DNA from: Perkinsus marinus ATCC 50983
Taxonomy: Eukaryota; Perkinsozoa; Perkinsida; Perkinsidae
Reading direction: 5' to 3'
Assembly (NCBI RefSeq): GCF_000006405.1
Contig: NW_003214849.1
Coordinates: 60,040 to 124,039 of the forward strand
DNA: 64,000 nt
Positions 3,909 to 51,529 of this stretch are shown here, one piece after another. The notes under the pieces were generated by a model. The model saw only the letters and a list, made by a program, of their open reading frames with translations, was not told where the DNA came from and ran no database searches. The position numbers and the translations under genes are program-made. Each line of letters begins with the position of its first letter. Positions within the stretch are counted from its first letter, which is position 1.

Positions 3909-6900
3909 ATGTTATCTCGTACGCTTTTACGGTCCTTTTCCGTAGCGTCATATAATCGTGTTATAAACATGTCGCGCGTGGTACCACTCGAGACTCTGTC
4001 GGAGAGACTCATAAAATTCCGTAAAGTGATGGAGGAGAAGCAATTCGGTGCTTATATAGTTCGCCACGATGACGCTCATCAGTCCGAGTAAGTCAACTTA
4101 TAATGATCGTTTGGAAATTTTGGGAAATTTTATTGAATTTTACGCAAATTCGTAAGTAAATTTTCACGATATAGTGAGAAAACTCCTGATCTCAAAAAGT
4201 TGTTGAGAGTGTGGTATGAATTTTCAGATACATCGCTGCTTGTGACGAACGCGTAGCATACCTCTCTGGTTTTGACGGTTCTGCAGGGACATGTGTTGTT
4301 ACTCCGACACAAGCTCTTCTGTGGACCGATGGCAGATATTTTTTACAAGCTCAAAATCAATTCGGAAAGGAGTGGTATCTGATGAAAGACCGTGAACCTA
4401 ACATTCCCACAGTGAAAGATTGGCTGCTTAGTAAGAACAGCATATGGAATCTACGATGTTAGTAGTACTAACATGAGAGCTTCGATACGATCGTGATATA
4501 ATGGAGTTTCACGACCCGTTTTACGCGAAGTGGCGTAAAACTCGGTGAAAACCCCAATATGCAGTAGTCGTGAAATATATTTTTCACTAGTGCTTTTCAT
4601 ATCACTAGGGTGGTGAAACTCCGTTATAAATCTTGTATCAGTGCATATCACTATACTCAATATATCAATATAGTAGAGTTTCTTGACCCTAGTGATATGT
4701 TTCACGACTACTGCATATCACCGCGAATATCGCGAGTTTTTCACCGAGTTTTACGCCACTCCAACACACCGTGTAAAACTCCATTATAGTACTCCCTTGG
4801 AACTCGCATTTGTTTTATGTGAATTTCATCTGATTAACGTTGTGAAAGAACCACTTCTACATATCTACATTTTCGAGATGGTTTTCCATATTGTCACCAA
4901 CACATGTAGTTGAACATGTTTATACTTTCTTACACTGTAGTAGTTTATGATAATTTTCAACTATACAGTATTTATGCATATCTACATTTTCGAGGTGGTT
5001 TTCCATATTGTCACCAACACATGTAGTTGACCATGTTTATACTTTCTTACACTGTAGTAGTTTATGATAATTTTCAACTATACAGTATTTATGCATATCT
5101 ACATTTCCAGATGGCTGAGTTCTTGAGACTAGTGATAATTGCATATGGAACATCTTATATTAGTAGTATAACAACAGTTTGGAATTTGTAATCGTCTGAG
5201 ATATTGAATCTCCTATCCGCATTCAGTGTGGGGGGAAATATGCATACGGTCAACCACATGTGTTGGTGCTGCCAAAAATGTTCGCTTTCCTCAGCTGAGC
5301 TCCAAATTTTCCTCACTAATCATAGAATTTTATATACAAATTAGGAGAATGTATAAGATTAGTGTACAGACACTAACAAGGATTTTCCAAATTTTCCTCA
5401 GAGTTTTCATATTGCCACCAACACATGTGGTTGATCATGCGCAAATTTTACCACACTGGCATGTGTTGGTGATGACAATATGAAAATTCTGAAAAAAAGT
5501 TATTAGTTTTCACCCTCATTTTCATGTATAATTAGCTTTGGAAACTCCAGAGCTCAACTGAGGAAAGCGAAAATATATTTCTCCGACGATTACTTTTTCC
5601 TTTTTTTCAGAAAATGCAAAGGACGTGACTGTCGGTGTCGACCCAGCGGTTACCTCAGTGGCGAGCTATATGGATTACACGAAAAGTGGTTTGAAAATCG
5701 CAATGGAAGAGCAGAATTTGGTGGATGCAATCTGGGATGATGATAAAGAGTACCCTAGACCTAAGCCTGGCAGTGATCCGGTAATAAGGAGTTTTACGAC
5801 CCGTTTTACGTGAAGTGGTGTAATAATACTCGATGAAAAATGCGATATTCGCGGTGATATGCAGTAGTCGTAAAATATGTTTTTCACCAGTGTTTTTCAT
5901 ATCACTAGGGTGGTGAACTCCATTATAAACATTATTTTTCCCATTGTTATCAAACTCTAGAAAACGTTATTTCTCAAAGCTGGTGTCACTCTGTAGATGA
6001 AAACAATTTGATTCGTTCGCCTTGGAAGATTTCATTTCAAACGTAGGTGCTGTTCCTCGATGAGAAATATTCTGGAGAGAGTACACTATCGAAGTTAACA
6101 CGAGTTCGAGAGGCTATGAAAAAACAGAATTGTAATGCGATGTTGGCGTCGTCTCTGGATGTCATCGCATGGACTACTAATCTTCGAGGAAGTGATATAG
6201 AGTAAGGCTGGGGGAAAGTACGGTATTCATGAGTTGATCTAGCCCAGACGTTTGGGTGTTGGGCGACTATGAGAAAGGTCGTGGGATCAAATCTATGTTA
6301 GAGTGTTATATTATTAGTAGTGGTGACAGTCACCGAGAGAAAGAAATTGCTGTAGTGATTGATGGGATTGTAATTTACAAAATGACGATTATTGAATTTT
6401 ATCGAAAGACTAATACAATGTACGTTCGCGGCGACCCAAGGTGTCCTCGTGCGAATGCACATCTCTCGTGGCACGTTGGGGGGAGCAACGAGGTCGTGAC
6501 CTAAGTACTCCGACGTTGGTCCCTCCATAAGATCTTACATCCGTATGTTTGCTGCAAGGTTAACAACTGGTATTAGGTGATATAACATTAGAACCTAACA
6601 TAATAATCGTTGTATATACGCCTTATATGTATTACGTAATAGGAGTATCCTCTAGCGTCTTGTCGTCGTCGTTGTTGTTAGTACTGATATGTTTTATGTG
6701 AACCCGTACCTCTGTGTGAAGTCACAGCTACCGTACTCGCACTCCTGTAGTGGTGTAGATGAATATGTGTATATTCATGAATATATTTTGCGAATGAGAA
6801 TAAAGATTCACTAAAATCTATATTCGCTCGATATAGTTATTACTGATGTTTACTTCTTGCAGAATTGATATTAGAGAGCTCATATGCTAGTCCATAGGAA

Positions 6901-9797
6901 ACAAATTTCTTTTTCACATGAGCGAACTCATGTAATGGAATTTCTTTAGTTTAGTTTTACATTATGTTAGGTACAATCCCCTATTCATGTCGTATTTGGT
7001 TATACTACAAGACTCTTGTTTGCTTTTTGTGAATTCTTGTCGCTTCACAAAGGATGCTACTGATGCTATGCAAAAAGCTGGGGTGCAATGTCGGCCTTAT
7101 GAAGAAGTAATGTGAAAAAATTTTGTGGCGCGTGACAGATTATTTTCGTCAGGTTTTTTCCTGGCTGAAATCCAACTGTTCATCAATCGGAAAAGTGTGG
7201 CTGGACCCCAACGCCTGCAATATGGCAGTTTACAGTGCGCTGGGTTCGGAGGCTGCTAAGTATGAGAACAGACTCCCTATGGTGTTGTGGAAAGCGATTA
7301 AAAATGAAGTGGAATGTGAAGGCGCGAGAGAGGCTCATCGAGAAGACGGTTTAGCTAAGACTAGATATATGTAATATGGTGGAGCGTAATACTACTCTGT
7401 TAAATGTAGTGGTTGTGATATATATATTTCTCACTAGTGTTTTTCATATATTGTTGAATAAATAGGAAATTCTATATCATAGCATTTAGTAATTGTTATG
7501 TTTTGTTGGAGTTTCACCCGTTTTACGTGAAGTGGTGAAAAACCCGATATGAAGTGAAATTAAAATACTTGGCGAATCACTTCATATCACGTGATATACA
7601 TACCACTTGTTTTACTAGTGTTTTTCATATCACTAGGGGGGTGAAGCTCGAGTGATGGAAAATATGCACATGTGTTGGTAAAATTTGTGAAAATTCTGAA
7701 CGTTGGTTTCTGTACTTTTTTTTCCGGATTTTATATGTAGAGCAGTGTTGGAGTAGGAATATATGCTAGCTTTCCTCAGCTGCTGAGCTCAGGAGTTTCC
7801 TATACAGTGTTGGAGTAGGAATATATGTTCGCTTTCTTCAGCTGAGCTCAGGAGTTTCCTATACAGTGTTGGAGTAGGAATATATGTTCGCTTTCTTCAG
7901 CTGAGCTCAGGAGTTTCCTATACAGTGTTGGAGTAGGAATATATGTTCGCTTTCTTCAGCTGAGCTCAGGAGTTTCCTATACAGTGTTGGAGTAGGAATA
8001 TATGTTCGCTTTCCTCAGCTGAGCTCAGGAGTTTCCTATACAGTGTTGGAGTAGGAATATATGTTCGCTTTCTTCAGCTGAGCTCAGGAGTTTCCTATAC
8101 AGTGTTGGAGTAGGAATATATGTTCGCTTTCTTCAGCTGAGCTCAGGAGTTTCCAAAGCTAACTATAAGAGTGTACAGAAACTTTGTAGAATTTCGTCAG
8201 AATTTTCAACACATGCAGTCAACTTTGAGTAATATCAACATGATAACAATATGAATCGATTGACACCAACGTTTTAGAAGCGTTACGTAGTCTATAGTCG
8301 TACTAGTCTCAAATTGAAGAACTCAGCCGTCTCGAAAATCTACATATGCATTCATACTGTATAATTGAAAACTATCATAAACTACTACAGTGTAAGGAAG
8401 TATAAACATGGTCAACTACATGTGTTGGTGACAATATGGAAAACCATCTCGAAAATGTAGATATGTATACATACTGTATAGTTGAAAATTATCATAAACT
8501 ACTACAATGTAAGAAAATATACGTGTTGGTGACAATATGGAAAACCACCTCGAAAATGTAGATATGCATAAGTGGTTCTTTCACACTGTAGGTATTGGCT
8601 GGAGCACCAGCTCGCTGATCTTAAGAGGAGTGATCTCGACGAAGTTGATGTTGCTGATAAATTGGAAGAATTTAGGAAAAAAAGTCCAAATTTTCGCGGG
8701 CTTAGTTTTACAAGTACTATATGTGTGGGCGTTGAGGAATTGCAAGATAGCAAGATTTTCACATTTTTCAGCGATTTCTTCGTTTGGAGCGAATGCTGCG
8801 GTTATTCATTATAGTCCTACGAAGGGAAGTGCGAGATCTGCTAGTGATAAGGAAATGTGAGTTGGAAAATGTTTGCGCATGCGTGCAGTCTTGGAGTAGG
8901 AATATATGTTTGCTGCATTTGAGAGTTTTTTCAGTAAATGTTGGTTAAGACTTTGCCGAAAATTTCGGCTTAGTTCGGGAAATTCCGCATTGATTGTAGA
9001 AGTTTATATATGAATTCGGGTAGAAGTGTACAGAAATTAATAATAATTTTCGAAATTGTCACCAACATATGTAGCTGATGATGTACAGATTTTCATATTT
9101 TTGTGCATGCGTGCAGTGCTGGAGTAGGAATATATGTTAGCTTTCCTCAGCTGAGCTCAGGAGTTTCCTATACAGTGTTGGAGTAGGAATATATGTTAGC
9201 TTTCATCAGCTGAGCTCAGGAGTTTCCTATACAGTGTTGGAGTAGGAATATATGTTAGCTTTCCTCACCTGAGCTCAGGAGTTTCCTATACAGTGTTGGA
9301 GTAGGAATATATGTTCGCTTTCATCAGCTGAGCTCAGGGGTTTCCTATACAGTGTTGGAGTAGGAATATATGTTCGCTTTCATCAGCTGAGCTCAGGAGT
9401 TTCCGAAGCTAATTATAAGAGTTATAGTAGACACGTAAGAATTTCCCAAAATTTTAATACTATCACCAACACATGTAGTTGATCATGTATAAATTTTCCT
9501 ATGTTTGTGTCTGCGTGCAAGTGTGAAATTTTTGTGTCTGCGTGCAAATATGATTTTTTTATCAAGGTATCTGGTGGATTCTGGAGGACAGTATTGGCAA
9601 GGCACGACTGATGTAACTCGTACCGTGCATTTGGGTACTCCTACTGCTGCTGAGAAGGATGCATATACTCGAGTTTTGAGGGGGCACATAGCGTTAGCAA
9701 AGCAGAAGTTCCCGGTGGGGACAGTTGGTCAGGCTTTGGACGCATTAGCTCGGCAATATCTCTGGCAAGGAGGAATGGACTTTCGACATGGAACAGG

Positions 9798-9835
<38 letters not shown>

Positions 9836-11728
9836 TGATGATGATTTTAAAATGGTAGTAGTTGATTTTATTAAGAATTTGGATAAAATGTGTATAAGTT
9901 TACCAAAAATTTCAAACTAGAGTAGATGATGAGTTTCAATCGTAGTAGTTTGTGATGATTTTGAAATGGTAATAGTTAAATTGGTTTTATTAGAAATTTA
10001 GATAAAATGGGTATAATTTTATCAGAAATTTCAGACTAGAGTAGATGATGATTTTCAATCATAGCAGTTTGTGATGGTCGGCAGTGTTGGAATATATGTT
10101 CGCTCTCCTCAGCTGAGGTTGGGAACTTTCTCGTTATTTATAAAAGTTGCTGTATGAATTCGGGTAGAAGTGTTGAGACTTTTTCGCACAATTTTCGTAT
10201 TGTCATCACCAACACATGTAGTGACCATGTGCATATTTTTCGATAGCAAAATATACGTACGGTTTGGAGTTGAAATATATAAAAACTAATACGAATTTCT
10301 TCCAAAATTTCCTCTCTCGATACTTGTCAGGTCACGGTGTTGGAGCCTATCTCTGCGTTCACGAAGGGCCTCACAATATCGGACCTCCTGGTCGTCCAGG
10401 GTACTCTATAATGGGATGAAGATTTTCCTACTTACTGCTGTTTCACCACCCTAGTGATATTAAAAACATAGTGCATATTTTAGTTGGCGAAAAACGCATG
10501 TGAGCAGTGAATAACGCGTAAAACATGTGGTATGTGTTTTACGTGATACGGGGTGGTTTGCTGAGTATCGCGTTTTTCACCACTTCACGTAAAACGGGTG
10601 AAACAGCCTTGTGTATTTAGTATTCCGGAGCCGTTGAAGCCTGGCATGATAATCAGCAACGAGCCTGGATACTATAAGGATGGGGAGTTTGGTATTCGCA
10701 TAGAGAGTCTGATGCTTGTCCGAGGTAGGTGGTAGGTCGCGGGTTCGATCCCTGCACCTGTCGTTTTTTCCGGAATATATTCCTCGTTAAATATAGGAGT
10801 TAGGCAGAAATGTAGAAAAATGAATAAATTTTCCTATTTATTAGTAAATAAAAAAGTTAACCGTTTTTCCACATAGTCTTTTCCCAGAATATATGTTCAC
10901 TTTCTTCAGCTGAGCTCNNNNNNNNNNNNNNNNNNNNNNNNNNNNNNNNNNNNNNNNNNNNNNNNNNNNNNNNNNNNNNNNNNNNNNNNNNNNNNNNNNN
11001 NNNNNNNNNNNNNNNNNACATTTGCTGGAAATGGAGACGCTAACTTTGGTGCCGATTCAGAAGAAACTGATCAACTCTGAGGATATGAACGCCGATGAAA
11101 TAGAGTGGTTGAATGAGTATCACGCACGAGTTTTTGCCAATGCTGAACCACATGTAAGTGGAAATGTGAGATAATTATTAGTTTACATTTGTATTATGAA
11201 ATTGGTAGAAGGATGGTAGGTATTCGATTATATGCTGATACTTGAAGAAGCTCTGTAGCAGCGAATATATTTTCTCTGGTTTTCGAGTTATTATAGTAGC
11301 CTTATTTTATGTCTTGTGAGGTTGTAGTAGCGAGATTATGTGTTTGGGATACTTACCAATACAGTGGCATATCACTATTTTCACAGTGTGTCACTATTTC
11401 CAATATACTAATACAGTAGCATATCACTATTTTCACAGTGTATCACTATTTTCAATATACCAATACAGTAGCATATCACTATTTTCACAGTGTATCACTA
11501 TTTCCAATATACTAATACAGTGGCATATCACTATTTTCACGATATATCACTATTTCCAATATACCAATACAACAGGTGTACAGTTCTCTTTGTCAGATCA
11601 AAGATGAAGCCGAGTTGGCATGGCTGAGGGATGCCTGTGCTCCACTGGTGGAGACGACTTCTCCTCGAAAGCGTAGAGGATCTTCGAGCCGTGCTGAGAG
11701 TATTGATAAGAGACAAAAGAATGATTGA
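3909..11728 (+). CDS. XPNPEP1: X-Pro aminopeptidase (aminopeptidase P, M24B), 13 exons
   Basis: It removes an N-terminal residue that precedes proline, as a dinuclear-metal M24 peptidase. Exons: 3909-4087, 4228-4430, 5611-5780, 6047-6201, 6971-7106, 7153-7370, 8592-8713, 8772-8856, 9567-9796, 10331-10400, 10621-10724, about 11018-11153 (start lost in an N gap) and 11597-11728. Phases agree at all junctions outside the gap. Recognisable blocks in order: [58 protein letters not shown], then the metal site [26 protein letters not shown] and METLTLVP (Asp, Asp, His, Glu, Glu). Residues 1-20 are rich in Ser, Leu and Arg and resemble a mitochondrial leader. Met21 at ATG 3969 would give a cytosolic form, so dual targeting is possible. 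A small exon between 10724 and 11018 is probably missing from the assembly. The Lys/Arg/Ser-rich tail is not typical of the human protein. Confidence 0.95.
4494..4792. mobile_element. MITE-A, two copies in XPNPEP intron 2
   Basis: A forward copy (4494-4627) carries GGAGTTTCACGACCCG at one end and GTGGTGAAACTCC at the other, flanked by TA dinucleotides (TA-TAAT-GGAG and CTCC-GTTA-TA). A reverse copy (4676-4792) follows. The subterminal inverted TIRs and TA duplication suggest a Tc1/mariner/pogo-type non-autonomous element. Confidence 0.8.
4853..5112 (+). repeat. Repeat C, two tandem copies (about 125 bp)
   Basis: Two near-identical units run from ATATCTACATTTTCGAG through TTACACTGTAGTAG to ACAGTATTTATGC, in intron 2 of XPNPEP. 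The same unit occurs in opposite orientation in intron 6 (8330-8575). Confidence 0.8.
5225..5580. mobile_element. MITE-B copies in XPNPEP intron 2
   Basis: A 3' terminus in reverse (CAGTGTGGGGGGAAATATGC at 5227), a forward truncated copy (about 5280-5463) and another reverse copy (about 5456-5580) are nested. The last ends shortly before the T-rich tract and acceptor TTTTTTTCAG at 5610. Confidence 0.7.
5781..5935 (+). mobile_element. MITE-A at the 5' splice site of XPNPEP intron 3
   Basis: Exon 3 ends at ...GATCCG and the intron opens GTAATAAGGAGTTTTACGAC, so the element starts within the splice donor. The other end reads GGTGGTGAACTCC followed by ATTATA, consistent with a TA duplication. 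Confidence 0.75.
7508..7655 (+). mobile_element. MITE-A in XPNPEP intron 6
   Basis: TIRs TTGGAGTTTCACCCG and GGGGGTGAAGCTCGAG bound an internally rearranged copy that contains an extra ATCACTTCATATCACG segment. Confidence 0.7.
7743..8225 (+). mobile_element. MITE-B with its 5' end amplified in a seven-copy 59-bp array
   Basis: A 59-bp unit beginning CAGTGTTGGAGTAGGAATAT starts at 7743, 7805, 7864, 7923, 7982, 8041 and 8100 (the first is 62 bp). The rest of the element follows, running to ACACATGCAGTCAAC. Six of the seven units carry the locus-specific variant ATGTTCGCTTT. Confidence 0.85.
8216..8345 (+). repeat. Repeat D, copy 1
   Basis: CAACTTTGAGTAATATCAAC to GTACTAGTCTCAAATTG is shared almost base for base with 53390-53515, which lies in an intron of the CFAP100-like gene. 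Confidence 0.8.
8330..8575 (-). repeat. Repeat C, inverted copies in XPNPEP intron 6
   Basis: Two units are the reverse complement of those at 4853-5112 (for example GTTGGTGACAATATGGAAAA followed by CCTCGAAAATGTAGATATGC). The second unit is shortened. Confidence 0.8.
8887..9500 (+). mobile_element. MITE-B copy plus MITE-B with a five-copy 59-bp array
   Basis: A degenerate copy (8887-9105) is followed by a second element at 9114-9500. The 5' 59-bp end of the second is repeated at 9114, 9173, 9232, 9291 and 9350. It lies in XPNPEP intron 8, whose acceptor ATCAAG is at 9561-9566. Confidence 0.8.
9797..9835 (+). repeat. (GTA)n microsatellite at a splice donor
   Basis: About twelve GTA units start directly at the GTGAGTAGTAG donor of XPNPEP intron 9. 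Confidence 0.9.
10083..10240 (+). mobile_element. MITE-B, truncated, XPNPEP intron 9
   Basis: It starts CAGTGTTGGAATATATGTTC and runs to CACCAACACATGTAGTGACC and CATATTTTTCG. The canonical CACACTG terminus is absent. Confidence 0.7.
10425..10607 (+). mobile_element. MITE-A filling XPNPEP intron 10
   Basis: TIRs GCTGTTTCACCACCC and ACGGGTGAAACAGC bracket nearly the whole 220-nt intron (10401-10620). The TIR variant GCTGTTTC replaces the usual GGAGTTTC. Confidence 0.75.
10725..10775 (+). pseudogene. tRNA 3'-half-like sequence at the XPNPEP intron 11 donor
   Basis: The intron opens GTAGGTGGTAGGTC and continues CGCGGGTTCGATCCCTGC, a T-stem and loop with the B-box core GGTTCGATCC, then GTCGTTTTTT, like a Pol III terminator. 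No 5' tRNA half is visible because the exon lies upstream. Confidence 0.6.
10868..10917 (+). mobile_element. MITE-B fragment running into the gap
   Basis: AGAATATATGTTCACTTTCT then TCAGCTGAGCTC matches the MITE-B 5' end and is cut by the Ns. Confidence 0.6.
10918..11017. other. Assembly gap (100 N)
   Basis: One hundred Ns, probably of arbitrary length, next to a MITE-B copy. A short XPNPEP exon between the LMLVR and LTLVP blocks is likely hidden here. Confidence 1.
11362..11570 (+). repeat. 52-bp tandem repeat, four copies
   Basis: Units start at 11362, 11414, 11466 and 11518 (CAGTAGCATATCACTATTTT, then CACAGTGTATCACTATTTCC). They are in the last XPNPEP intron. Confidence 0.9.
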
Positions 11729-13592: not shown

Positions 13593-15235
13593 TCATGTGA
13601 GATAACTACCGGGACAGTTTACTTCACTCACATCATCTCCTGAACGCTCCCGAACAGGGCCAGCAGATGCGCTCTCTTCAGCTTCGGTATCCTCCTCAAT
13701 GTTCGACTGGACAAAGCCATCTGACATCTCGCCGGGTGGTGTCACGTGGGAGGATTCGGTGCTGTCGGCGGACTCCCCAACGGCGGGCATGACCGGCACA
13801 AGGTCTGAGAGACAGGAGACTTGTGCGACCAAAATCATCGCTGGAATGGTCTAGTTGGTTATGACGACTGCCTAACACGCAGTAGGTCCCGAGTTCGATT
13901 CTCGGTTCCAGTATTTATCACTTGTTGGTTCTTCTTCCACATCATCATCATCTTGCCGAGTTTCACGACGTGTATCGACCTCGAATAAACAAAACGATTA
14001 ATGCGAACCACCAAGCCAACGACTTGTAACGAGCACACGAATCGCATAAGACATAACTACTCGCGGGACCGCACAAAAGCGAGCTTCCTACTAATGAGCT
14101 CCCCTGCGAGTCACGTCGCCGCCGACTCTCAGCCTCTTCCGCCGTACAGAACGCCCAACCGAGGTGCTGATCGGTAATGACCAGTTCGTAGATGTGAACC
14201 AGCGCTTTCATAACTAGACATTTCCCATCGAAGCACGCCAATACTGCTCTCGAGTTTCAACCAGCAAAGCCGAGGGCTTTCCAAAACAATTTCAATTAAC
14301 GAGTCTAGTTCTGTCGTGAAAGTTTTTAAGGGAGGTTTTGCTTTTTCCACTCCGGAGTGGCAACTCGAGCAAGCATGGAATGTGAATTAACCAGTGATGC
14401 ATATCGGCGTATCGACTCAACACGTGAGAAGGGCGTCTTGAAATCCATGGCGCTAAGATCGTCTCCCCTCAGTCACAGCGGAGCGAAGTTTTTCACGATG
14501 TGCATCAGTGACCACACCTGGATAGTTGCTGCGGTGTTTTGAGCTTCTAATCAGCAAATGAACTGTCAATTTTCAGTCACAATCAGCCGATACAACACGT
14601 GAGGAGGGCGACTTCCCGTCCCACTAGGCCGTTTCATACCGCCCTACTGCTAGGCGGCGAGTTAGATATCTTTTTCAGTTCTATGATCATATTGCTTAGT
14701 ATCAATCGCGACTCCACATATTCCACGCAGATGAGTATTCCAGGACGCGCTCAGGTTTCCCATATACCCTACCACGCCGCATGTACTGCACATCGCCATC
14801 ATCCACAGATACGGTGGAAACCAACTAAGACGAAAAATCAATATTTTTCCAGCGATAAATTTACCTGAATTCCCCCTCGGGCGAACTGGCGACTCTAATA
14901 CCGCCATGTGGGAGTTCCGCAGGCCTCGCGCGACACACGTCAAAGCGATACTCATGAGGGTTCGTAGCGCTGAAGTTAACGAATCGAACTTCATGCCAGG
15001 TTGGAAGAATATGCACATGTGGAAATTTATACGTAATCAGCTTTATGAAGTTGACAGAAATCAACAAGAATTGCCCGAAATTCCCACATTATCACCAACA
15101 CATGTAGATGACCATGTGCACATTTTGTGCCCCCGACAGCCAAAGGCGTCTCACCTGTAGCACCAGGCCGAGTCCTCCAGCACGTCAAGTTCATATGAAT
15201 ATACAACTTCCTTATAAATACTTTCATACCTGATC
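13593..15235 (-). CDS. Unrecognised multi-exon gene (partial model)
   Basis: Several minus-strand stretches look coding and are joined by good splice signals. One runs from about 15230 to 15155 (YESIYKEVVYSYELDVLEDS) with donor GTGAGACG. A second covers about 15030-14865 and contains TWHEVRFVNFSATNPHEYRF, with donor GTAAATTT. A 40-nt intron then leads to a third, 14824-14662 (WFPPYLWMMAMCSTCG). Further open stretches at 14241-13963 and 13838-13593 include an acidic Ser/Glu-rich segment and one hydrophobic helix (LAWWFALIVLF). The second stretch has a beta-sandwich feel (alternating hydrophobics, Asn/Pro turns), but I do not recognise the family. The start, end and several junctions are not resolved, and two different genes could be mixed here. 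Confidence 0.35.
13840..13912 (+). tRNA. tRNA-Val (anticodon AAC)
   Basis: A full cloverleaf can be drawn. The acceptor stem is GCTGGAA/TTCCAGT (first pair G-U). The D-arm contains TAGTTGGTTAT. The anticodon stem is ACTGC/GCAGT with loop CTAACAC (anticodon AAC). The variable loop is AGGTC, and the T-arm is CCGAG-TTCGATT-CTCGG. Length 73 nt. No strong T-run follows directly. The same GTAGGTCCC-TTCGA arrangement recurs at an intron donor at 18530. Confidence 0.9.
15005..15128 (-). mobile_element. MITE-B-like fragment
   Basis: ATATGCACATGTGGAAATTT on the left and CACCAACACATGTAGATGAC followed by CATGTGCACATTTTG on the right look like two 3' ends in opposite orientation. It overlaps the second coding-like stretch of the unknown gene. 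Confidence 0.5.
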
Positions 15236-16680: not shown

Positions 16681-16780
16681 TGCAAACTGCTCATGAAAGA
16701 TTCGAAATCCGTTTCTCCATTTTGAGAAGTCAGTGATGTAATAATAAACACGAAAAAGAAAATAAAAATAACAACAGTGA

Positions 16781-17245
16781 AGTTTCACCACCCTAGTGAT
16801 ATGTAAAACACTAGTGAAAAATATATTTCACGACTACTGCATATTACCGCGAATATCGCGTTTTTCATGGAATATCACGCCACTTAACGTAAAACGGGTC
16901 GTGAAACTCCACCGTAATATCAACCAATTATGTATACGTATCGTCAATCAGTGCAACATTTTGTATATGGAGTATAACAAAATTATAGTATTAGAGTTTC
17001 ACCACCCTAGTGATATGAAAAACATATTTCACATTCTACTTCGTTGGTGAATAACGCGTAAAACACGTGGTATGTATTTCACGTGATATGGGGTGATTCG
17101 CCAAGTGTTTTCAATTCACTTCATATCGCGTTTTTCACATACAGTGGGGTGGCGTAAAACTCGGTGAAGAACGCGATATTCGCGGTGATATGCAGTAGTC
17201 GTGAAATGTGTTTTTCATATCACTAGGGGGTGAAACTCCAATATT
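16781..17245. mobile_element. MITE-A cluster
   Basis: A reverse copy (16781-16912, TGAAGTTTCACCACCC to ACGGGTCGTGAAACTCC) and a composite of two half-elements (16984-17245) that contains AATAACGCGTAAAACACG. Confidence 0.75.
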
Positions 17246-17880: not shown

Positions 17881-19257
17881 TGTTGTCGTGACTAGTGTAT
17901 GAATAACACTCTGAAATCATTCCAGCATTCGTTTGCCTTATTCTCGCGTGGTTACGCACAGCCACTTCAACGGACTCCCCCTACATGTTGAGTTCAACGA
18001 GAGTGATCTTAGTGAATAGTTGGTGAATGGTTGGTATTCACCAACTATTCACCACTTAGTAAATGGTTGATTATATACATTAGATTACAACACTTCTTAC
18101 CATGATAGACATAATAGCAACTGCGATATGCAGGCCTATTGTCGCGATACACGTTGGAGAAACTCCACCACAGAGAACGGAGTTAGGCATACCAGGAAGC
18201 TTTACGGCTTCATACGAAACGTATCTTGCAATAGCGACGATACGCAAAGAGTTGTGAAATATGTCCTTGCTAGTGTTTTTCATATCATTCGTTTCACGTG
18301 AAGTGGCGTAATAATACTCTGTGAAAAAACCCGATATTCGCGGTGATATTCGCAGTAGTCGTGATATCACTAGGGTGGTGAAACTCAATTGTAAAAATAA
18401 AAATTTGAGATAAATTATCCCAAAATTTCATGCAATGCATATATGAGCTCATTGAATTCTGACTAACAGTTGTTTTGTAAATTTTCGATCGGAGAAAATA
18501 CCCTCGCTGGGATTCGAACCCGGGACCTACTCTTCACCAACCACCCACATAAGCGTCCACATTGCTCCCAACACTGGCTGGAAAAAGAGGCTCATTACAC
18601 TACCGATATGAACATAGCCTAAGATCTTCATCAACTGTGGCACAGTAGCAATTCCACACAACTTCATAGCACTCTGAAAAAATAATTTCGTGGCGAGTGA
18701 CAAAATTTTTACCTTCATGAAATCGGTCTTGGCAAAATGGGCATATAACGCGGGGAGGTACGTCTGAAGATCCATCGGGGCTACTTTGTACGCACACCCA
18801 AGATTCAAGATTCCTACACCTGATAACAGTGGACTTTCACCTTAGTGATATGTGGAATATATTTCACGACTACTGCATATCACCGCGAATATCGCGTTTT
18901 TCACAGAGTATTATTACGCCACTTCACGTAAAACGGGTTGTGGAACTCCAGAGCTGGAGGAATATATATTTGATTTCCTCAGCTGAGCTCAGGAATTTTC
19001 TCACTTACATGGAAATTCGGGTAGAAGTGTACAAAAACCAAAAACAGTTTACCAAAAACTTTATACGAATTCAGATAGGACTGTACAGAAACCAATAAGA
19101 ATTCACCAGAAAATTTCCTCACATTTTTTTCTATATTGTCACCGAAGATCCACGTCGCACGCGAAGATTCAAAGCAGGTACGATTATTACCAAGAAAAAT
19201 CAACAGTAGTCCAAAATAGCATCCAGCCGTGAATAGCTGCAGTGCGAACTTGATCAT
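17858..19257 (-). CDS. Multipass membrane protein, possibly DoxX-like, five exons
   Basis: Exons (minus): 19257-19191, 18819-18713, 18673-18531, 18225-18102 and 17980-17858. All phases fit, giving 187 aa. A hydrophobic N-terminus (FALQLFTAGCYFGLLLIFLG) is followed by helices around LMKILGYVHIGSVMSLFFQP, VLGAMWTLMWVV and PTCIATIGLHIAVAIMSIM, so about four membrane spans are likely. Length and topology resemble DoxX/TMEM35-type proteins, but I see no diagnostic motif, so function is open. Intron 2 is only 39 nt. Intron 3 opens GTAGGTCCCGGGTTCGAATC, a tRNA-like T-arm. The last codons (RVLRRV) and the stop come from a MITE-A end, so the tail may be a recent replacement. The upstream TTTTTTTTATAG at 19271 could accept a spliced leader. 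Confidence 0.75.
18012..18053. repeat. Inverted repeat, 16-bp arms, 9-nt loop
   Basis: GTGAATAGTTGGTGAA and TTCACCAACTATTCAC are perfect complements, in intron 4 of the membrane protein gene. Confidence 0.9.
18246..18392 (-). mobile_element. MITE-A, internally rearranged
   Basis: The central GTCCTTGCTAGTGTTTTTCA and GTTTCACGTGAAGTGGCGT blocks are joined out of the usual order, ending GGGTGGTGAAACTC. Confidence 0.65.
18490..18530 (-). pseudogene. tRNA 3'-half-like sequence at an intron donor
   Basis: On the minus strand exon 3 of the membrane protein ends ...GAAGA and the intron begins GTAGGTCCCGGGTTCGAATC then CCAGCGAGGGT and ATTTTCTCC. Compare GTAGGTCCCGAGTTCGATTC in the intact tRNA-Val at 13883. 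The match covers variable loop, T-stem and T-loop. Confidence 0.7.
18834..19150. mobile_element. MITE-A next to MITE-B
   Basis: Reverse MITE-A (18834-18950, CACCTTAGTGATATG to ACGGGTTGTGGAACTCC), directly followed by a MITE-B (18955-19150), in intron 1 of the membrane protein gene. Confidence 0.75.
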
Positions 19258-24372: not shown

Positions 24373-27300
24373 ATGACTCGCCTTCCCCTCTTAATCTTCA
24401 TTCCTCTTATCCTAACCGTAGTTTCTGCAGCCCCGACCGAGGCTGACTGGCAGACTGTTACGGCAAAGTTCAACCCCACGACTAACGAGATAGTCTACAA
24501 CAACATCAGTTTCGAAGGACCCAAAATTCTGGATCATTCGCACTATGTATTCAACACTATCATGACCGTTATATGCGTGGTATTAATAATCAATAGCGCT
24601 CTCCCATACCACACCTCGATCACATCCTGTCAGATCTGTGCAGCGCTGGCGTCTGGTCTCACTATGGGGTTGGTCTCACTAGATGACTTTGATCTGAGGA
24701 TACTGATGGAGTCGAGCGAAGAAGACGTTCCTGACCCAGCCGATAAGGCTGAGATGAGGAAGGAGAAGCGAGCTGCTGTTAGATTGTAATATAATCATTG
24801 GAGTCTCACGTGAAGTGGCGTGATATTCGCGGTGATATACAGTAGTTGTGAAATGTATTTTTTCACTAGTGTTTTTCATATCACTAGGGTGGTGAAACTG
24901 CATGAATTTGTCGTGAAGGGAATATATATCCGCTTCCCTCAGCTGAGCTCAGGAGTTTCCAAAACTAATTATAGATTTCGGGTAGAAATGTATTGATATC
25001 AACAAGAATTTCCCAAAATTTCCTCTCAAAATTTTCATATTGTCATCATCACCACCAACACATGTAGTTCCGAAACTGCACTTTCGCGTGTTAGACATCC
25101 CCTAATTTCGCGTCACCACCTCCTACTGGTGACTCTATTACTGGTGAACTCACTAGCCAACGAAGCGTTGCCTCTGTTCCTAGATCAAATAGTGCCTTCT
25201 TATATGGCGGTGTTGGTCTCAGTCACGCTGGTAATACCGGGAGGATCTTGCACGCGTGCGTTAAATATTGACGGTGCGTTTATCGTCTCTCCCTTCCTAC
25301 AGCAGAGAAACACTTCCTTTCTACTGGTATATAGTTTTTTATTCGACGCTCATTTATCAGAGTTGTTCCATAGTAAAAATTTTTAATTTTGCAATGAAAA
25401 TAAACTATGTAGTGTAAGAAAATATGCAGTGATTTTCGGTGCCGATTNNNNNNNNNNNNNNNNNNNNNNNNNNNNNNNNNNNNNNNNNNNNNNNNNNNNN
25501 NNNNNNNNNNNNNNNNNNNNNNNNNNNNNNNNNNNNNNNNNNNNNNNCCCCCCCCCCCCCTTCCCCTCCAGAATCTTCGCTGTGCGATTTTGAGTATCTT
25601 TGCCAGGTGTTAGTATTTGGCGAAATAATACCGTCCGCGGTGTTTACTGGACCAAATCAGTTATCTATAGGGGCAGCGTTGGCCCCTTTAGTGAAGTAAT
25701 GCGGGAAAAACGCCGGTCGTGGGAATCGAACGTGAGGTCCTTGAGAGGGAATACACATCGCTATAGAAATGGGTGAGGTCCTCTTGGTCGTAGTTAGTAT
25801 ATGAGAATGAGATTTTCGTAGAAATGTCGCTACCAGGATTCGAACCAGGTTCCTAATGGTTATCTTCTACCCGGTTGCCGGCCCAGTTGCATGGTGCCTC
25901 GATAAGACTCTAGGAGAGGAGCACAAAGGGCGGTATAACAAAGCGGAATTTAAGGCTTTGCTGAATCTACATCAGTATGATGAGGTGAGGAGGAGGTGTC
26001 GGGTTCGAACCCCGGTGAGGATATTTTGAAGTGTATTATTTTCTATGCATGTTCTCCAGTTGGTACTGTTCCGCAGATTTTAAATGTATTTTTCGTATCT
26101 CAGACCGGCGATGTTGATATAGAAACAGGAGTGAGCGGTCAGTCCACACCGTTGAATACTCACACGACAGCAGGAGGAGATGGTCTAACAGGGAGAGGCG
26201 AAGTCCATCATCATGTAATGCCAAAGGGCGTGGGTTCGATCCTAGGCGGCTGAATTTGTAATGGCCGCAACAGCGAGAGTTTCTTCTCCCTTGGTCCCGT
26301 GGAGTGAAGTATACGGAGTAAGGAGAAAATATTCTTTATCACTCCTTCTACACGCGTCGAACATGAAGTTCGTATTGTCTTTTTTGGATGTTCGTTTTGA
26401 GCGTGTGTCAAACTTGAATATTTAGTTGTCAATCTTGAAAGTAAAATTATAATTTTTGTGTGTTTACTATTCAAATTTGACGATACTGAACGGTTACGCT
26501 GGTCATCGAGGAGCTCTGATATTTTTGGGTACAGAAGTGCCTATTTAGTGATCAAAGTGATATAGTGTGACGATCGATGCTGCTCATTCGGAAATGTTGT
26601 TTTAGGGGGTTTATAGATGCATGTAGGGTAAACAGTTTGTGAAAATATGCACATGGTGAACTACGTATGATTGGTGGGTATTAATAAAATGCTAGTTGGT
26701 GCAAAGTTTTAACTAACATAACATAAATCTGGGTTGCTAATCACACAGCGCTCAAACACCTATTGGTCGTTTGAGGTTTTTGGAAAAAAATATGAAAATT
26801 TTGAGGAAATTTTCGGGAAATTCTCGTTGTTTTTTTTTTCTGAACACGCGTACCGTAATTAATGTGTTAACTAGCGTGGTTAATTTCGAGTCTGGCTGGG
26901 AAAAGTGATTATATATTTTTATCCAACACTCCTCGTAGAGGATTTCACCACCATCATAAAATTAGTGTTTGTTGATAACGACCTCTTTTGTGTGCAGGTC
27001 CAACTACATTCCCGTGGAGGTATTACTAAGGAGGAGCTCCGGATGATGCAAGGCGCATTGGAACTACATCGCCTCAAAGTAAAAGATGTGATGACGCCGT
27101 TGGATCAGGTAGTAGTAGTTCGTATGAAACGATGATATGTTTGTTATGTGATATTCCACATTATCCTTTTTTTTGGAGGACTGTACGTACAAGTCGCCGA
27201 ATATGAGTATAAACTCAATGAGCCCATTGTGGCTTAACTCTACTGGAATCGATCAAGATGGCGCGCGCTTTTTTGAATCTAGGTTGCGATGTATTCGGCT

Positions 27301-28106
27301 GATCAAGCTCTGGATGCCAAGACATTACAGGACATAGTGGAGAAAGGCCATTCTCGATTGCCGATTTACCAGGGTTATCCACACAATGTAAAAATGCCCG
27401 CCGTGGGGATGGAACCGTGGACCTCCCGAATGAGAGAATTGACAGGTGCATGGTATGCTGCTTGTCAAACGGTTGATCACTTTGAATCCGGGAGATGCAG
27501 TTCGAATAGGAAACACCGATTTATTAGAGCCTATGGTAGGTTATATTGACGGGGGCGGAGCGAAGCGATTCATGTTTGTCAGATTTGTGATATGGAGACC
27601 ACCTTGCTGGATATGCTTTATGAATTTTCAACTGGCAGGAGTCATCTAGCAGTAGCGACTGACGATCCGGAGAGGGTGAGTGGATGTTGCGCATGCGTGC
27701 AAGGGAATAATCGTACCATATTTCCTACACTTCATGGCATATGTTAGGTCATCGAGGCCATTCATGGGGAGAAGCAGATTCCATGCAACATTCACATGGC
27801 AGGGATCATCACGCTTGAAGACGTCATTGAAAGGTTGATAAAACACGATATTCAAGGTAGAACGTTTTTGGGTGGGCGAAAAAATCCGAACGCCAGAACG
27901 TTTTTCGGCTGGTGAAAAAATCCGGACACGGGAAATTTTTCATTCTTTTCAAGGCCAGAGTATGAGAACGATTAAGTGGGGATTTTTGGGCCGTCAGGAA
28001 TATATGAATATGCGTTTTTACTCTGTCAGATGAAAGCGATATATCGGTAACGCTGCAACCCGTATTGCATCTTCCTTCCTCAACTGGAGGAAAGATCAAA
28101 ATGTAG
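24373..28106 (+). CDS. CNNM/DUF21-CBS metal (Mg2+) transporter, 11 exons
   Basis: A membrane Mg2+/divalent-metal transporter or its regulator. Exons: 24373-24785, 25068-25230, 25607-25695, 25849-25984, 26104-26214, 26998-27108, 27283-27387, 27446-27535, 27583-27675, 27748-27856 and 28030-28106. Phases agree throughout, giving 498 aa. Order: signal peptide (LPLLIFIPLILTVVSAAP), helix, DUF21 blocks ASGLTMGLVSLDDFDLRIL, HHLLLVTLLLVNSLANEALP and VFGEIIPSAVF, then NKAEFKALLNLHQYDE, the linker QGALELHRLKVKDVMTPLDQ, CBS1 (HSRLPIYQGYPHNVHGMLLV), CBS2 (GRSHLAVATDDPER) and AGIITLEDVIERLI. The TAG at 28104 is the simplest end. A donor GTAACG at 28047 would instead join, in phase, to an exon at 28639-28787 and a longer Ser/Thr-rich tail. 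Introns 3, 4, 5 and 7 carry tRNA-like sequence; intron 1 is bounded by MITE-A and MITE-B; an N gap lies in intron 2. Confidence 0.93.
24797..25067. mobile_element. MITE-A and MITE-B making up CNNM intron 1
   Basis: The intron starts GTAATATAATCATTGGAGTC, so MITE-A (24797-24902) begins about ten bases after the donor. MITE-B (24917-25067) ends early, and its internal ACCAACACATGTAG provides the AG acceptor of exon 2. Confidence 0.75.
25448..25547. other. Assembly gap (100 N)
   Basis: One hundred Ns in CNNM intron 2, followed by a run of 13 C. Confidence 1.
25696..25848 (-). pseudogene. CNNM intron 3 bounded by two antisense tRNA-like 3' halves
   Basis: The intron opens GTAATGCGGGAAAAACGCCG and continues GTCGTGGGAATCGAACGTGA, i.e. 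on the minus strand CACGTTCGATTCCCACGAC then CGGCGTTTTT. It closes GCTACCAGGATTCGAACCAG, on the minus strand CTGGTTCGAATCCTGGTAGC. Each has a B-box-like GTTCGAWTCC. Confidence 0.6.
25985..26030 (+). pseudogene. tRNA 3'-half-like donor of CNNM intron 4
   Basis: GTGAGGAGGAGGTGTCGGGT, then TCGAACCCCGG and ATATTTTG. The T-stem CGGG/CCCG can pair. Confidence 0.6.
26215..26258 (+). pseudogene. tRNA 3'-half-like donor of CNNM intron 5
   Basis: GTAATGCCAAAGGGCGTGGG, then TTCGATCCTAGGCGGC. B-box core GGTTCGATCC lies 18 nt after the donor. Confidence 0.6.
27388..27445 (-). pseudogene. 58-nt CNNM intron 7 consisting of an antisense tRNA-like 3' half
   Basis: On the minus strand the intron reads ...CATTCGGGAGGTCCACGGTT then CCATCCCCACGGCGGGCATT and TTTAC. 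That is an AGGTC-type variable loop, T-arm GGTTCCATCC and a T5 run. The T-run complement lies directly at the 5' splice site (GTAAAAATG). Confidence 0.6.
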
Positions 28107-28565
28107 TATTCTATCTCTGCCTCATTCGAGCACAGTTCGCGTGAAATGTGGTCTGTATGAATTATTCGAAGCTCTAGATAACAATAGGGAGAAATTCCCC
28201 ATTGTGCGTGGTCGGACTGTATTACCTTCCTTATGGTTGGTTGTTATTAAACTATTCATCATCATCGTTAGTGTGTCTTCACTCTGCCTATAGCCTGCCA
28301 TATAGTATATACCGATATAGCAATATGTCATACAGTGTGGAAGTGGATGATTTGTCTTAGTCCCGCCTCCCCACATGGACGTAGCATTAAGATTAGCGCA
28401 CCAACGGGTGTGTTGTCGATCAAGCATCAGCCGCCTAATAGCGTCGGGAGTAAGCTTGAATACATGGGACAATAGAGAGAGTTGTGGTATTAGGGTCAGC
28501 TTCGGTAAAGTCTAGTCATGCACCGACATCACAAGCAGGCAGGGAATCACCATCGCTCAGGGTGA

Positions 28566-28787
28566 GTAGTTGGTTAGGATTCACGTCCGTCACGCGGAAG
28601 GTCCTTGGTTCGATCCTTGGTTGGGTCTTTTTTTTCAGACGCCTTTGCTGAAGGATACGTCTTCTACGACGGGAGTAATGCCGGTGATCACTGAGACGTC
28701 TCCGATGTCTGCTCACTCTACGACTTCATCGAAAAGTGAGTTGGATCTGGCAATAAGCAATCTCACCCATCTTGCATTCCCTCCAAG
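28566..28787 (+). other. tRNA-Asp-like sequence joined to a possible downstream CNNM exon
   Basis: GGTGAGTAGTTGGTTAGGAT, CACGTCCGTCACGCGG, AAGGTCCTTGGTTCGATCC and GGTTGGGTC resemble tRNA-Asp(GTC) with a decayed anticodon stem. The following T8 tract and CAG form the acceptor of an open exon 28639-28787 (Ser/Thr-rich, ending NLTHLAFPPR), followed by donor GTAAGAAAG. That exon is in phase with an alternative donor of the CNNM gene at 28047. Confidence 0.5.
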
Positions 28788-30537: not shown

Positions 30538-30890
30538 GTGGGGAAAAATATGCACATGGCGCTCTACATGTGTTGGTGATGACAATATGAAAATTCTGGG
30601 AGGAAGTTATTGGTAATCCTTATTGGTTCTTATAGAGTTGACAATGTTCACTTCCACCCGGACCCATGAACTTATATGTAGTTGAGAAAACTCCCAAGCT
30701 CAGCCGAGCACTGCCACTAACGGTCGTACTGTTATGATAACTACCGTATCATTGGAGTTTCTTGGCTCTAGTGATATGAAAAAAACACTAGTGAAGAATA
30801 TATTTCACGACTACTGCATATCACCGCGAATATCGCGCCTTTTTCACCGAGTTTTACGCCACTTCACGTAAAACGGGTTATAAAACTCCA
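30538..30890 (-). mobile_element. MITE-B then MITE-A, both reverse
   Basis: MITE-B 30538-30715 (GGTGTGGGGAAAAATATGCA ... CTCAGCCGAGC). MITE-A 30751-30890 (ATTGGAGTTTCTTGGC ... ACGGGTTATAAAACTCC), flanked by ATCATT and ATCAAT. Confidence 0.75.
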
Positions 30891-31439: not shown

Positions 31440-32253
31440 CACTGCGGTAGAAGTGTCCAAAAACCAAGGAGAACTTACTGAAATTTTTTTCAGAATTTTC
31501 ATTTTGTCACAAACACATGTAGTTGACCATGTGCATATTTTTCCACACACTGGACAAGAGCGCCTCAACGATGGGAGGGATATTCATCCACAGCAAAAGT
31601 ACCAGTGTTGGAGTAGGAATATATATTCGCCTTCCTCAGCTGAGCTCAGGAGTTTCCTATACAGTGTTGGAGTAGGAATATATGTTAGCTTTCCTCAGCT
31701 GAGCTCAGGAGTTTCCTATACAGTGTTGGAGTAGGAATATATGTTAGCTTTTCTCAGCTGAGCTCAGGAGTTTCCTATACAGTGTTGGAGTAGGAATATA
31801 TGTTAGCTTTCCTCAGCTGAGCTCAGGAGTTTCCTATACAGTGTTGGAGTAGGAATATATGTTAGCTTTCCTCAGCTGAGCTCAGGAGTTTCCTATACAG
31901 TGTTGGAGTAGGAATATATGTTAGCTTTCCTCACCTGAGCTCAGGAGTTTCCTATACAGTGTTGGAGTAGGAATATATGTTAGCTTTCCTCAGCTGAGCT
32001 CAGGAGTTTCCTATACAGTGTTGGAGTAGGAATATATGTTAGCTTTCCTCAGCTGAGCTCAGGAGTTTCCTATACAGTGTTGGAGTAGGAATATATGTTA
32101 GCTTTCCTCAGCTGAGCTCAGAAGTTTCTAAAGGCAATTATGAAATTCGGGTAGAAATGTACAGAAATCAATGATAATTCCCCCAAATTTCTTCAAAATT
32201 TTTATATTATCACCAACACATGTAGTTGACCATGTGTATATTTCCCCCCACAC
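31440..32253. mobile_element. MITE-B pair, one with a nine-copy 59-bp array and an 8-bp target duplication
   Basis: A reverse MITE-B (about 31445-31560) is followed at 31603-32253 by a forward element. The forward element's 5' 59 bp is repeated at 31603 + 59k (nine units to about 32133), with the locus variant ATGTTAGCTTT in the units after the first. Flanks AAAAGTAC (31595-31602) and AATAGTAC (32254-32261) match in 7 of 8 positions, an 8-bp duplication as expected for hAT elements. Confidence 0.85.
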
Positions 32254-33154: not shown

Positions 33155-33292
33155 TTGGAGTTTCACGACCCGTTTTACGCGAAGTGGCGTATTACTCGGA
33201 GAAAAACGCGATATTCGCGGTGATATGCAGTAGTCGTGAAATATGTTTTTCACTAGTGTTTTTCATATCACTAGGGTGGTGAAACTCCATTA
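33155..33292 (+). mobile_element. MITE-A, well preserved
   Basis: TTGGAGTTTCACGACCCG, CGCGATATTCGCGGTGATAT, GCAGTAGTCGTGAAATATG, ATCACTAGGGTGGTGAAACT then CC. This is one of the cleanest copies and a good reference for the family. Confidence 0.85.
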
Positions 33293-33322
33293 AATGAATA
33301 CAATCGTCCATTTCGCTTAATG

Positions 33323-50618: not shown

Positions 50619-51529
50619 ATGGGTTGCAGTTCGTCAATACCAGAAGTGGCGGAGGAGGGAATGTACAGTGTGAAGGTTAGCGGAGCGAAGCGAGTTGAAT
50701 GTAACGAATTGTATGAAGTTAATAAATGTGATCATTCGACAACAGAAGAACAGTCGAGTGAGGAAGGGGAAGGTGATAATGACGGAGAGGTTGCGGGTTC
50801 GATTTTATCGTGTGGTATTTTATAAGATATGAACGTTTTAAAGAGGGATATTTCTTCCGGATGAGATTCCGTTGCTTTAATCGTCTGCTGAGTAGATGAT
50901 CTGCGTGAGTAGTATTCAACTGTGTTGATATTTCAGGAGCCGTGGTTACGAATCCGGCACAGGTTCCAAACCTGGTGGGAGCATCTCCCACCTCGGTTAT
51001 TAAAGAATGTCCTCCCAAGAGGGGACATGGCAGTAGGGGCATTGATGTAGAAGATAGAATGTGGGTTAGATGTGGATCTGCTACGAGTAATAAGTTACTA
51101 CTATCGCCGGTAAGGCACCTGTTATAACTAATAACAGATCGCTTCTTGTTGGTGATTTTTATCACACAACGATTTTGGAGTGTATTTTATTACTCATTTC
51201 TCCACTACGTTTTTGTGATATTTTTTCCGTCAGATTATTGCCCTCCACCTCCACCGCTTCCCATGAGGCAATCCTTCTCGTCGTCTCCACTCTGTACCAT
51301 ACTCGAGGACTCTCCTTTATCAAGTCGACAAATGCACTACTACTATGCATCTAGGAGTACGGGTGAATTAATGGGCGCGCGGTCATCGTCACGATCTGTG
51401 GAATTGAGGAGATCATGCAGTGGGGGGTTGCCTCATCATCATGAGAGGCGAAGACGAGATCACCATCGAGCACCTCCGCGATATCGTTACTGTGCGGAAA
51501 GGGTAAATCCAGCGGTTAAGGTGGCGTAA
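50619..51529 (+). CDS. Predicted N-myristoylated/palmitoylated protein, three exons, unknown family
   Basis: Exons 50619-50772, 50937-51086 and 51234-51529; phases fit (1 and 1); 199 aa. It begins MGCSSSIPEVAEEG. Gly2 followed by Cys3 and Ser residues is a strong myristoylation plus palmitoylation signal, so membrane attachment is likely. The middle is acidic (TEEQSSEEGEG), then VIKECPPKRGHGSRG. The last exon is Pro-rich (DYCPPPPPLPMRQ), Ser-rich and Arg/His-rich (HHHERRRRDHHR). There is no enzymatic domain. MGCxxS proteins of alveolates often bind the pellicle or flagellar membrane (general knowledge, not shown here). Intron 1 contains GGTTGCGGGTTCGATTTTAT, a tRNA-like T-arm. Confidence 0.7.

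What the first reader, a model, noticed from the sequence alone, without database searches (positions are those of the whole stretch)
18490..18531. 5' splice sites made from tRNA 3' halves recur in several genes
Seven introns in four genes carry tRNA-like T-arms at their boundaries. With confirmed phases, five open in sense orientation: XPNPEP intron 11 (10725), CNNM introns 4 and 5 (25985, 26215), the membrane-protein intron 3 (18530, minus strand) and MGCSSS intron 1 (50773). In these the B-box GGTTCGA lies 10-23 nt after the donor. The donor at 18530 reads GTAGGTCCCGGGTTCGAATC; the intact tRNA-Val at 13883 reads GTAGGTCCCGAGTTCGATTC, so the GT is the junction of the anticodon stem and variable loop. 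CNNM introns 3 and 7 carry the antisense form. This suggests that tRNA-derived elements (or insertion of tRNA fragments) create introns, an introner-like process that I have not seen described for tRNA halves.
Basis: partly seen in the sequence, partly recalled or inferred. Interest (0 to 1): 0.88.

Follow-up and report, generated by a model that had tools for sequence, protein, structure and literature searches.

The report
tRNA-end pieces inside short introns
In what is very probably the oyster parasite Perkinsus marinus, a number of short introns contain a roughly 35-letter stretch that looks like the tail end of a tRNA gene, in either direction and beside the splice sites; it may be a new route by which introns arise or a reused control site, but neither has been shown.

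Summary
The window is very probably Perkinsus marinus. Protein relatives support the donors at 18530, 25985 and 26215 and an unreported element-intron at 28562-28638. GGTTCGATCCC occurs 924 times in the 54-Mb genome against 5 for the reversed pattern; GGTTCGAATCC 433 against 11, part of them tRNA genes. Aligning 130 non-tRNA hits gives one 35-nt unit, AGGTCCCRGGTTCGAWYCCYGGNNNCGRCATTTTT: tRNA positions 44-73 plus the Pol III T-run, nothing conserved upstream. It lies in spliceosomal introns in both orientations and nearly fills homology-supported introns of 46-62 nt in Brr2 (two), cystathionine synthase, GTP cyclohydrolase and cullin genes. Donors are about 3-fold enriched at fixed distances. 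It is not a conserved folded T-arm: stem positions do not covary; the A box is mostly absent. In one paralogue pair donor-to-B-box is kept while the rest of the intron diverged; a second pair is mixed. Best reading: introner-like mini-introns of tRNA-3'-end origin with a B-box core under constraint. Intron creation and any bound protein are inferred. MGCSSS intron 1 is not supported.

The parts
18225..18530 (-). intron of a small membrane-protein gene; donor GTAGGTCC lies inside the element
   Evidence: P. olseni P0121 continues across the junction
18494..18528 (-). tRNA-3'-end element, sense; its GTTCGA begins 11 nt after the donor
   Evidence: motif score 30.3
25696..25848 (+). CNNM intron with two antisense elements, one at each splice site
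   Evidence: P0001 and P0002; both ends still align with the paralogue on C299 (coordinates)
25706..25740 (-). antisense element next to the donor
   Evidence: score 16.3
25820..25854 (-). antisense element; GATTCGAACCAG| gives the acceptor, its first bases fall in the exon
   Evidence: (score 24.4)
25985..26103 (+). CNNM intron with sense element at 25994-26028
   Evidence: P0001
26215..26997 (+). CNNM intron with sense element at 26225-26259
   Evidence: P0001; paralogue alignment ends at the last base of GTTCGA
27388..27445 (+). 58-nt CNNM intron, antisense element (27390-27424, core GTTCCA); donor GTAAAAATG is the T-run read backwards
   Evidence: (score 26.4)
28562..28638 (+). 77-nt CNNM intron that by eye is a nearly whole tRNA-like sequence from the D-arm to the T-run, ending TTTTTTTTCAG
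   Evidence: P0001; not called a tRNA by ARAGORN or Rfam
10725..10768 (+). XPNPEP donor and sense element; acceptor not determined
   Evidence: (score 28.1)
13840..13913 (+). tRNA-Val gene for comparison
   Evidence: ARAGORN, Rfam
50773..50803 (+). MGCSSS intron 1: GGGTTCGATTTT, not supported as an element
   Evidence: lacks C61-C62; not in the list

Best explanation
P. marinus (very probably) carries several thousand dispersed ~35-bp pieces that resemble tRNA gene 3' ends (positions 44-73 plus the Pol III terminator). A good part of them form part or nearly all of short GT-AG introns, in either orientation. In sense orientation the donor lies about 10-25 nt before the B box and the T-run can serve as pyrimidine tract before the AG. 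In antisense orientation the reversed T-run can itself give a GTAAAA-type donor (27388). They most likely spread as small copied units that made introns on insertion (introner-like), and the B-box core was afterwards kept by selection, perhaps because a B-box-binding factor such as TFIIIC still uses it. Shown: the motif, its abundance, its place in homology-supported introns, both orientations, the near-invariance of its core. Inferred: the genome-wide number, spread by copying, intron creation, selection as the cause, the bound factor.
For: 924 GGTTCGATCCC against 5 reversed. Consensus confined to tRNA 44-73 plus T-run at tRNA spacing, no flank conservation, n 130. Similar pairs exceed a column-shuffled null inside the unit (19 or more of 25 columns: 40 pairs against 3.98, null maximum 11) but not in flanks 30-43 or 79-92, n 125. 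Homology-supported element-introns of 46-62 nt (Brr2 53 and 52, CBS antisense 49, GCH1 62, cullin 46): a 35-nt insert into an existing intron would leave only about 11-27 nt before it, below the 39-nt minimum reported for P. marinus (PMC3101222, passages). GT[AG]AG at -26..-12: 11 against 3.49 expected, P 1e-3; antisense CT[CT]AC at +18..+40: 17 against 5.60, P 8e-5; the same patterns on the wrong sides give 2 and 2, n 125. Core kept: TTTGA form 17 against 924; paralogues L130/L131 differ at 1 of 31 nt from donor to TTCGAT but at 17 of the next 29, and at 12 of 63 in the exon before (11 synonymous codons, 1 not).
Against: T-stem pairs do not covary (z -0.1, 0.7, 0.0) and the 5' and 3' halves are on average unlinked (mean z 0.02, 2.3% of cross pairs above 3), unexpected for direct copies of diverse working tRNAs. 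Among 15 loci fetched from 22 matches to one donor-spaced pattern, alike copies were gene duplicates. Elements in the CNNM paralogue appear older than that duplication, and there also whole introns without an element align, so conservation there is not special to the element. No target-site duplication was established. 9 of 14 CNNM introns show no element. Only 62 of 130 elements had an acceptable splice pair within 50/70 nt, so many may lie outside short introns. The open-frame splice test was weak (70 of 130 against 164 of 390 controls at 90 nt or more).
Confidence: 0.45

Rival explanations
1. Functional B-box sites (like extra-TFIIIC sites) that evolved or were kept in introns because introns are the non-coding room inside genes; they did not create the introns.
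For: C56 nearly invariant while flanks are loose; independent halves and no stem covariation fit a binding motif; donor-to-core conserved in L130/L131; both orientations.
Against: The T-run and AGGTC sit at exact tRNA spacing, which a bare B-box site would not need; similar-pair excess suggests copying; the conserved block in L130/L131 includes the donor-side spacer, not only the B box; in the CNNM paralogue whole introns without an element also align. I lowered this from 0.33 to 0.30 when I rechecked.
Confidence: 0.3
2. Ordinary tRNA-derived SINEs or tRNA pseudogenes that happened to land in pre-existing introns.
For: Some loci carry longer repeats around the B box (L090/L105/L108/L121; L009/L026); some hits have an A box (7 of 130 at score 8 or more, control 0; 14 against 2 at score 6 or more); window 28562-28638 looks by eye nearly like a full tRNA.
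Against: No shared tail or flank over the set; homology-supported introns of 46-53 nt are too short to have existed without the insert.
Confidence: 0.15
3. Chance, or annotation error around real tRNA genes.
For: GGTTCGA alone is only about twofold over chance in the window (15 against 7.09); 26 of 156 hits lie in tRNA genes.
Against: Longer patterns are 39- to 185-fold over the reversed control; 0 of 20 loci that I picked match RF00005 even at E 5 (the one hit was a sub-threshold tmRNA match in L104).
Confidence: 0.02

Closest known systems
Introners / introner-like elements (PNAS 2022, PMC9860276: start of abstract in the search listing and passages; Amoebophrya, PMC7789003: passages)
   Same: introns in unrelated genes share one sequence unit that supplies or abuts splice sites
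   Different: unit is a 35-nt tRNA 3' end with independent halves; no inverted or direct terminal repeats established; canonical GT-AG; copies are not near-identical
tRNA-derived SINEs (recalled)
   Same: B box and tRNA-like spacing, dispersed copies
   Different: no A box in most of the set, no tail, only tRNA 44-73 plus terminator
Extra-TFIIIC (B-box-only) sites (PMC12409998 and others seen in the search listing only; detail recalled)
   Same: B box without tRNA gene, both orientations
   Different: in this genome inside introns and far more numerous; binding untested
Dada transposons targeting tRNA genes in P. marinus (PMC3706591, abstract and passages)
   Same: mobile DNA linked to tRNA genes in the same species
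   Different: putative target in the Perkinsus tRNA-Ile and -Tyr families is the A box (TAGCTC) and complete Dada elements are 4.7-11 kb; here the piece starts at position 44

Membership tests
Introner elements | same sequence unit in introns of several unrelated genes | tested here: met
   CNNM, membrane protein, Brr2, CBS, GCH1, cullin
Introner elements | unit coincides with the intron or its splice sites | tested here: met
   homology-supported 46-62-nt introns nearly filled; donor peaks in both orientations; but 68 of 130 elements had no acceptable splice pair nearby
Introner elements | highly similar copies from recent spread | tested here: not met
   alike copies among the 15 loci were duplicated genes; best pair 22 of 25 columns
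Introner elements | target-site duplication or terminal inverted repeats | tested here: inconclusive
   only read by eye from flanks; occasional short repeats, no consistent pattern
Introner elements | presence/absence of the intron between relatives | not testable with these tools
   no Perkinsus relative DNA held; the CNNM paralogue appears to share the introns
tRNA-derived SINE | A box upstream of B box | tested here: not met
   7 of 130 at score 8 or more; 16 of 26 real tRNAs, which partly made the matrix
tRNA-derived SINE | shared body or tail beyond the tRNA part | tested here: not met
   no flank conservation over the set; two small groups are exceptions
tRNA gene | matches the tRNA covariance model | tested here: not met
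   0 of 20 picked loci
Extra-TFIIIC site | B box GGTTCRANTCC without working tRNA | tested here: met
Extra-TFIIIC site | bound by TFIIIC without Pol III | not testable with these tools
   no binding data
Dada transposon | insertion at the tRNA target site (A box TAGCTC in Perkinsus tRNA-Ile and tRNA-Tyr families) | tested here: not met
   conserved unit starts at position 44; target from PMC3706591 passages

The most novel reading that the evidence does not exclude
Fragments of tRNA genes spread through P. marinus as introner-like units: insertion made new mini-introns because the Pol III terminator doubles as a pyrimidine tract (sense) or as a donor (antisense), and thousands of these pieces still act as B-box docking sites for the Pol III factor TFIIIC inside Pol II genes.
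Probability: 0.2. Interest if true: 0.92.

Novelty: new variant of a known kind. Interest (0 to 1): 0.72.

Why it matters
Sources of new spliceosomal introns are few and debated. A tRNA-end unit that brings its own splice signals would be a new source class, and constraint on a B box inside Pol II introns would link the two transcription systems. Both can be tested by comparing Perkinsus genomes and RNA-seq. In the listings of my searches of the open-access library I saw no title or abstract start reporting it; subscription papers are not covered and only four papers were opened.

Tried and rejected
RNA T-arm: rejected as the conserved feature, no covariation. Whole tRNA genes: rejected for the 130. 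CpG decay as the reason for the R51/Y63 mixture: considered, not supported, since the core CpG is not decayed. Self-trained gene finder: coding signal too weak, about 26 kb called coding in 263 kb; it gave the candidate boundaries of 25985-26103 but was not used for counts of introns; its splice and coding tables scored. Open-frame splice test not discriminating. Strict donor scores gave few sites. Near-identical GTGAG...GGTTCGA pairs turned out to be duplicated genes. Dada transposons considered and set aside. Rows dropped: 5 of 130 (window -26010, L018 +6378 and -6385, L056 -116, L019).

Sampling: searches list only 100 places each of 433 and 924. Of the list I took 20 stretches of up to 10 kb and 60 of about 600 bp, leaving out some tight clusters; of the list 40 stretches. 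So columns inside the 11-mers are fixed by selection, and the 263-kb scan is drawn partly from around chosen hits.

Full report
What was checked. The organism is very probably Perkinsus marinus: residues 1-24 of the protein Pmar_PMAR020330 match the window at 100% (19961-19890) and residues 25-82 match 18817-18605 apart from one unspliced 39-nt intron; its last 78 residues do not match this gene (taxonomy). The CNNM search listed no protein named P. marinus among its 120 best; the nearest named one was P. olseni, 87% over 52%. P. olseni P0121 fixes the junction at 18530/18225 (GEEYVS against GAEYVS). P. olseni P0001 fixes the CNNM introns 25985-26103, 26215-26997, 27388-27445 and 28562-28638, and with P0002 also 25696-25848. 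XPNPEP at 10725 is compatible with a spliced M24/M24_C product. MGCSSS at 50773 lacks half of the B box and does not appear in the scan.

Genome scale. GGTTCGAATCC occurs 433 times against 11 reversed and GGTTCGATCCC 924 against 5. I fetched part of the listed places (20 stretches of up to 10 kb, 100 of about 600 bp). With the window these gave 156 hits, 26 inside tRNA genes found by ARAGORN and 130 not. The 130 share only positions 44-73 of a tRNA plus a T-run; no position upstream of 44 passes the printed threshold. In 263 kb, leaving out the chosen sites and tRNA genes, 39 matches at 38 places (score 14 or more with TTCGA unscored) stand against 1 in reversed sequence, roughly one per 7 kb; the matrix was built partly from the same hits and the stretches were partly chosen around hits, so several thousand in the genome is an extrapolation.

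Place in introns. In element orientation GTAAG/GTGAG/GTAGG number 21 in the bin -20..-11 against about 3 per bin elsewhere, n 130. GTAGG at -11 can come from the element itself, so I repeated with GT[AG]AG only: 11 against 3.49 expected, and antisense CT[CT]AC 17 against 5.60, n 125; on the wrong sides both patterns give 2. Sixteen of 125 have a simple donor-and-AG pair around them in sense orientation, 43-64 nt long; most of these were not tested by homology. Under a combined score 62 of 130 had an acceptable splice pair in either orientation. Homology across the splice: Brr2, two consecutive introns of 53 and 52 nt, aligned to human Brr2 through both junctions; cystathionine beta-synthase, 49 nt, antisense; GTP cyclohydrolase I, 62 nt; cullin, 46 nt, PF00888 E 1.9e-13 (phmmer against PDB found nothing). 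Of the ten spliced frames sent, only the cullin gave a clear match across the junction. Window 28562-28638 is 77 nt and by eye almost a whole tRNA ending TTTTTTTTCAG. In CNNM 5 of 14 introns have the element, so it is common there but not needed for splicing.

What the motif is. Stem pairs 51-63, 50-64 and 49-65 pair no more than shuffled columns (65, 71, 64 of 130). Halves are on average unlinked while columns within halves are linked. Pairs of elements are more alike than a column-shuffled null within the unit, not in the flanks; differences in copy quality could add to this. C56 is close to invariant: the TTTGA form of GGTTCGATCCC occurs 17 times (control 1), the TTCAA form 139 (control 13), and 7 of the 100 listed TTCAA places lie inside tRNA genes listed. 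That is the tolerance expected of a B box (recalled), not of neutral CpG decay.

Conservation. In paralogues L130/L131 the last 63 exon bases differ at 12 (11 synonymous codons, 1 not), intron bases 1-31 at 1, bases 32-60 at 17 of 29. For the CNNM paralogue on C299 I have coordinates only. Two alignments run from exons into element-bearing intron ends and stop near the element (39 nt and 31 nt at the two ends of 25696-25848, 25 nt to the last base of GTTCGA in 26215-26997), although intron 25985-26103 is aligned through. At element-free ends alignments stop within 5 nt before exons 7 and 8 and inside exon 7. Against this, one alignment (82%, 618 against 615 nt) runs through the element intron 27388-27445 and also through two element-free introns and 42 nt into a third, and another (68%) runs through an element-free intron and 28562-28638. 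So this pair does not show that the element is specially conserved; L130/L131 does, as one case.

Interpretation. An intron of 46-53 nt in which 35 nt are the element is hard to explain by insertion into an existing intron: either insertion made the intron, or the motif arose in place under selection. Copy-like pairs and exact tRNA spacing favour the first; independent halves, lost stem pairing and core constraint favour the second or later constraint. I hold introner-like origin plus later B-box constraint as most likely at 0.45, with pure B-box function at 0.30 (lowered from 0.33 after rechecking).

Literature. Amoebophrya introners have inverted and direct repeats and non-canonical sites (PMC7789003, passages). 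PMC9860276 (passages) has no occurrence of Perkinsus or tRNA in its main text. P. marinus introns are GT-AG, 39-1622 nt, mostly under 100 (PMC3101222, passages). Dada elements target tRNA genes in P. marinus (PMC3706591, abstract and passages).

Noticed in passing
window 7664-8317, 8973-9567, 31462-32233: Three arrays of a 59-nt tandem repeat (family with GGAATATATGTTCGCTTTCCTCAGCTGAGCTC), plus single copies across the window.
   Followed up: no
window, e.g. 4501-4622, 5801-5922, 16778-16911, 18225-18530, 24819-24906, 30781-30878, 33156-33293, 56148-56269, 58828-58949: A second dispersed repeat family (TTTTTCACTAGTGTTTTTCATATCACTAGGGTGGTGAAACTCC / CACGACTACTGCATATCACCGCGAATATCGCG) in both orientations; one copy lies within the 18530 intron.
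   Followed up: no
window 44779-45096: Tandem repeat with 35-nt spacing, inner copies 98-99% alike.
   Followed up: no
G000 C299:93292-97674: CNNM paralogue, about 66-84% identical in its better protein pieces, with introns at the same places where alignable.
   Followed up: partly
L020 1-580: The gene with two consecutive element-introns encodes a Brr2-type helicase, itself a spliceosome part.
   Followed up: partly
L090, L105, L108, L121; L009, L026: Longer repeat families carry the B-box motif in their middle, possibly source elements.
   Followed up: partly
window 18667-18705: A 39-nt intron (GTAAAAATTTT...TTTTTTCAG) without element in the membrane-protein gene, inferred from P0121 and P0122.
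   Followed up: partly
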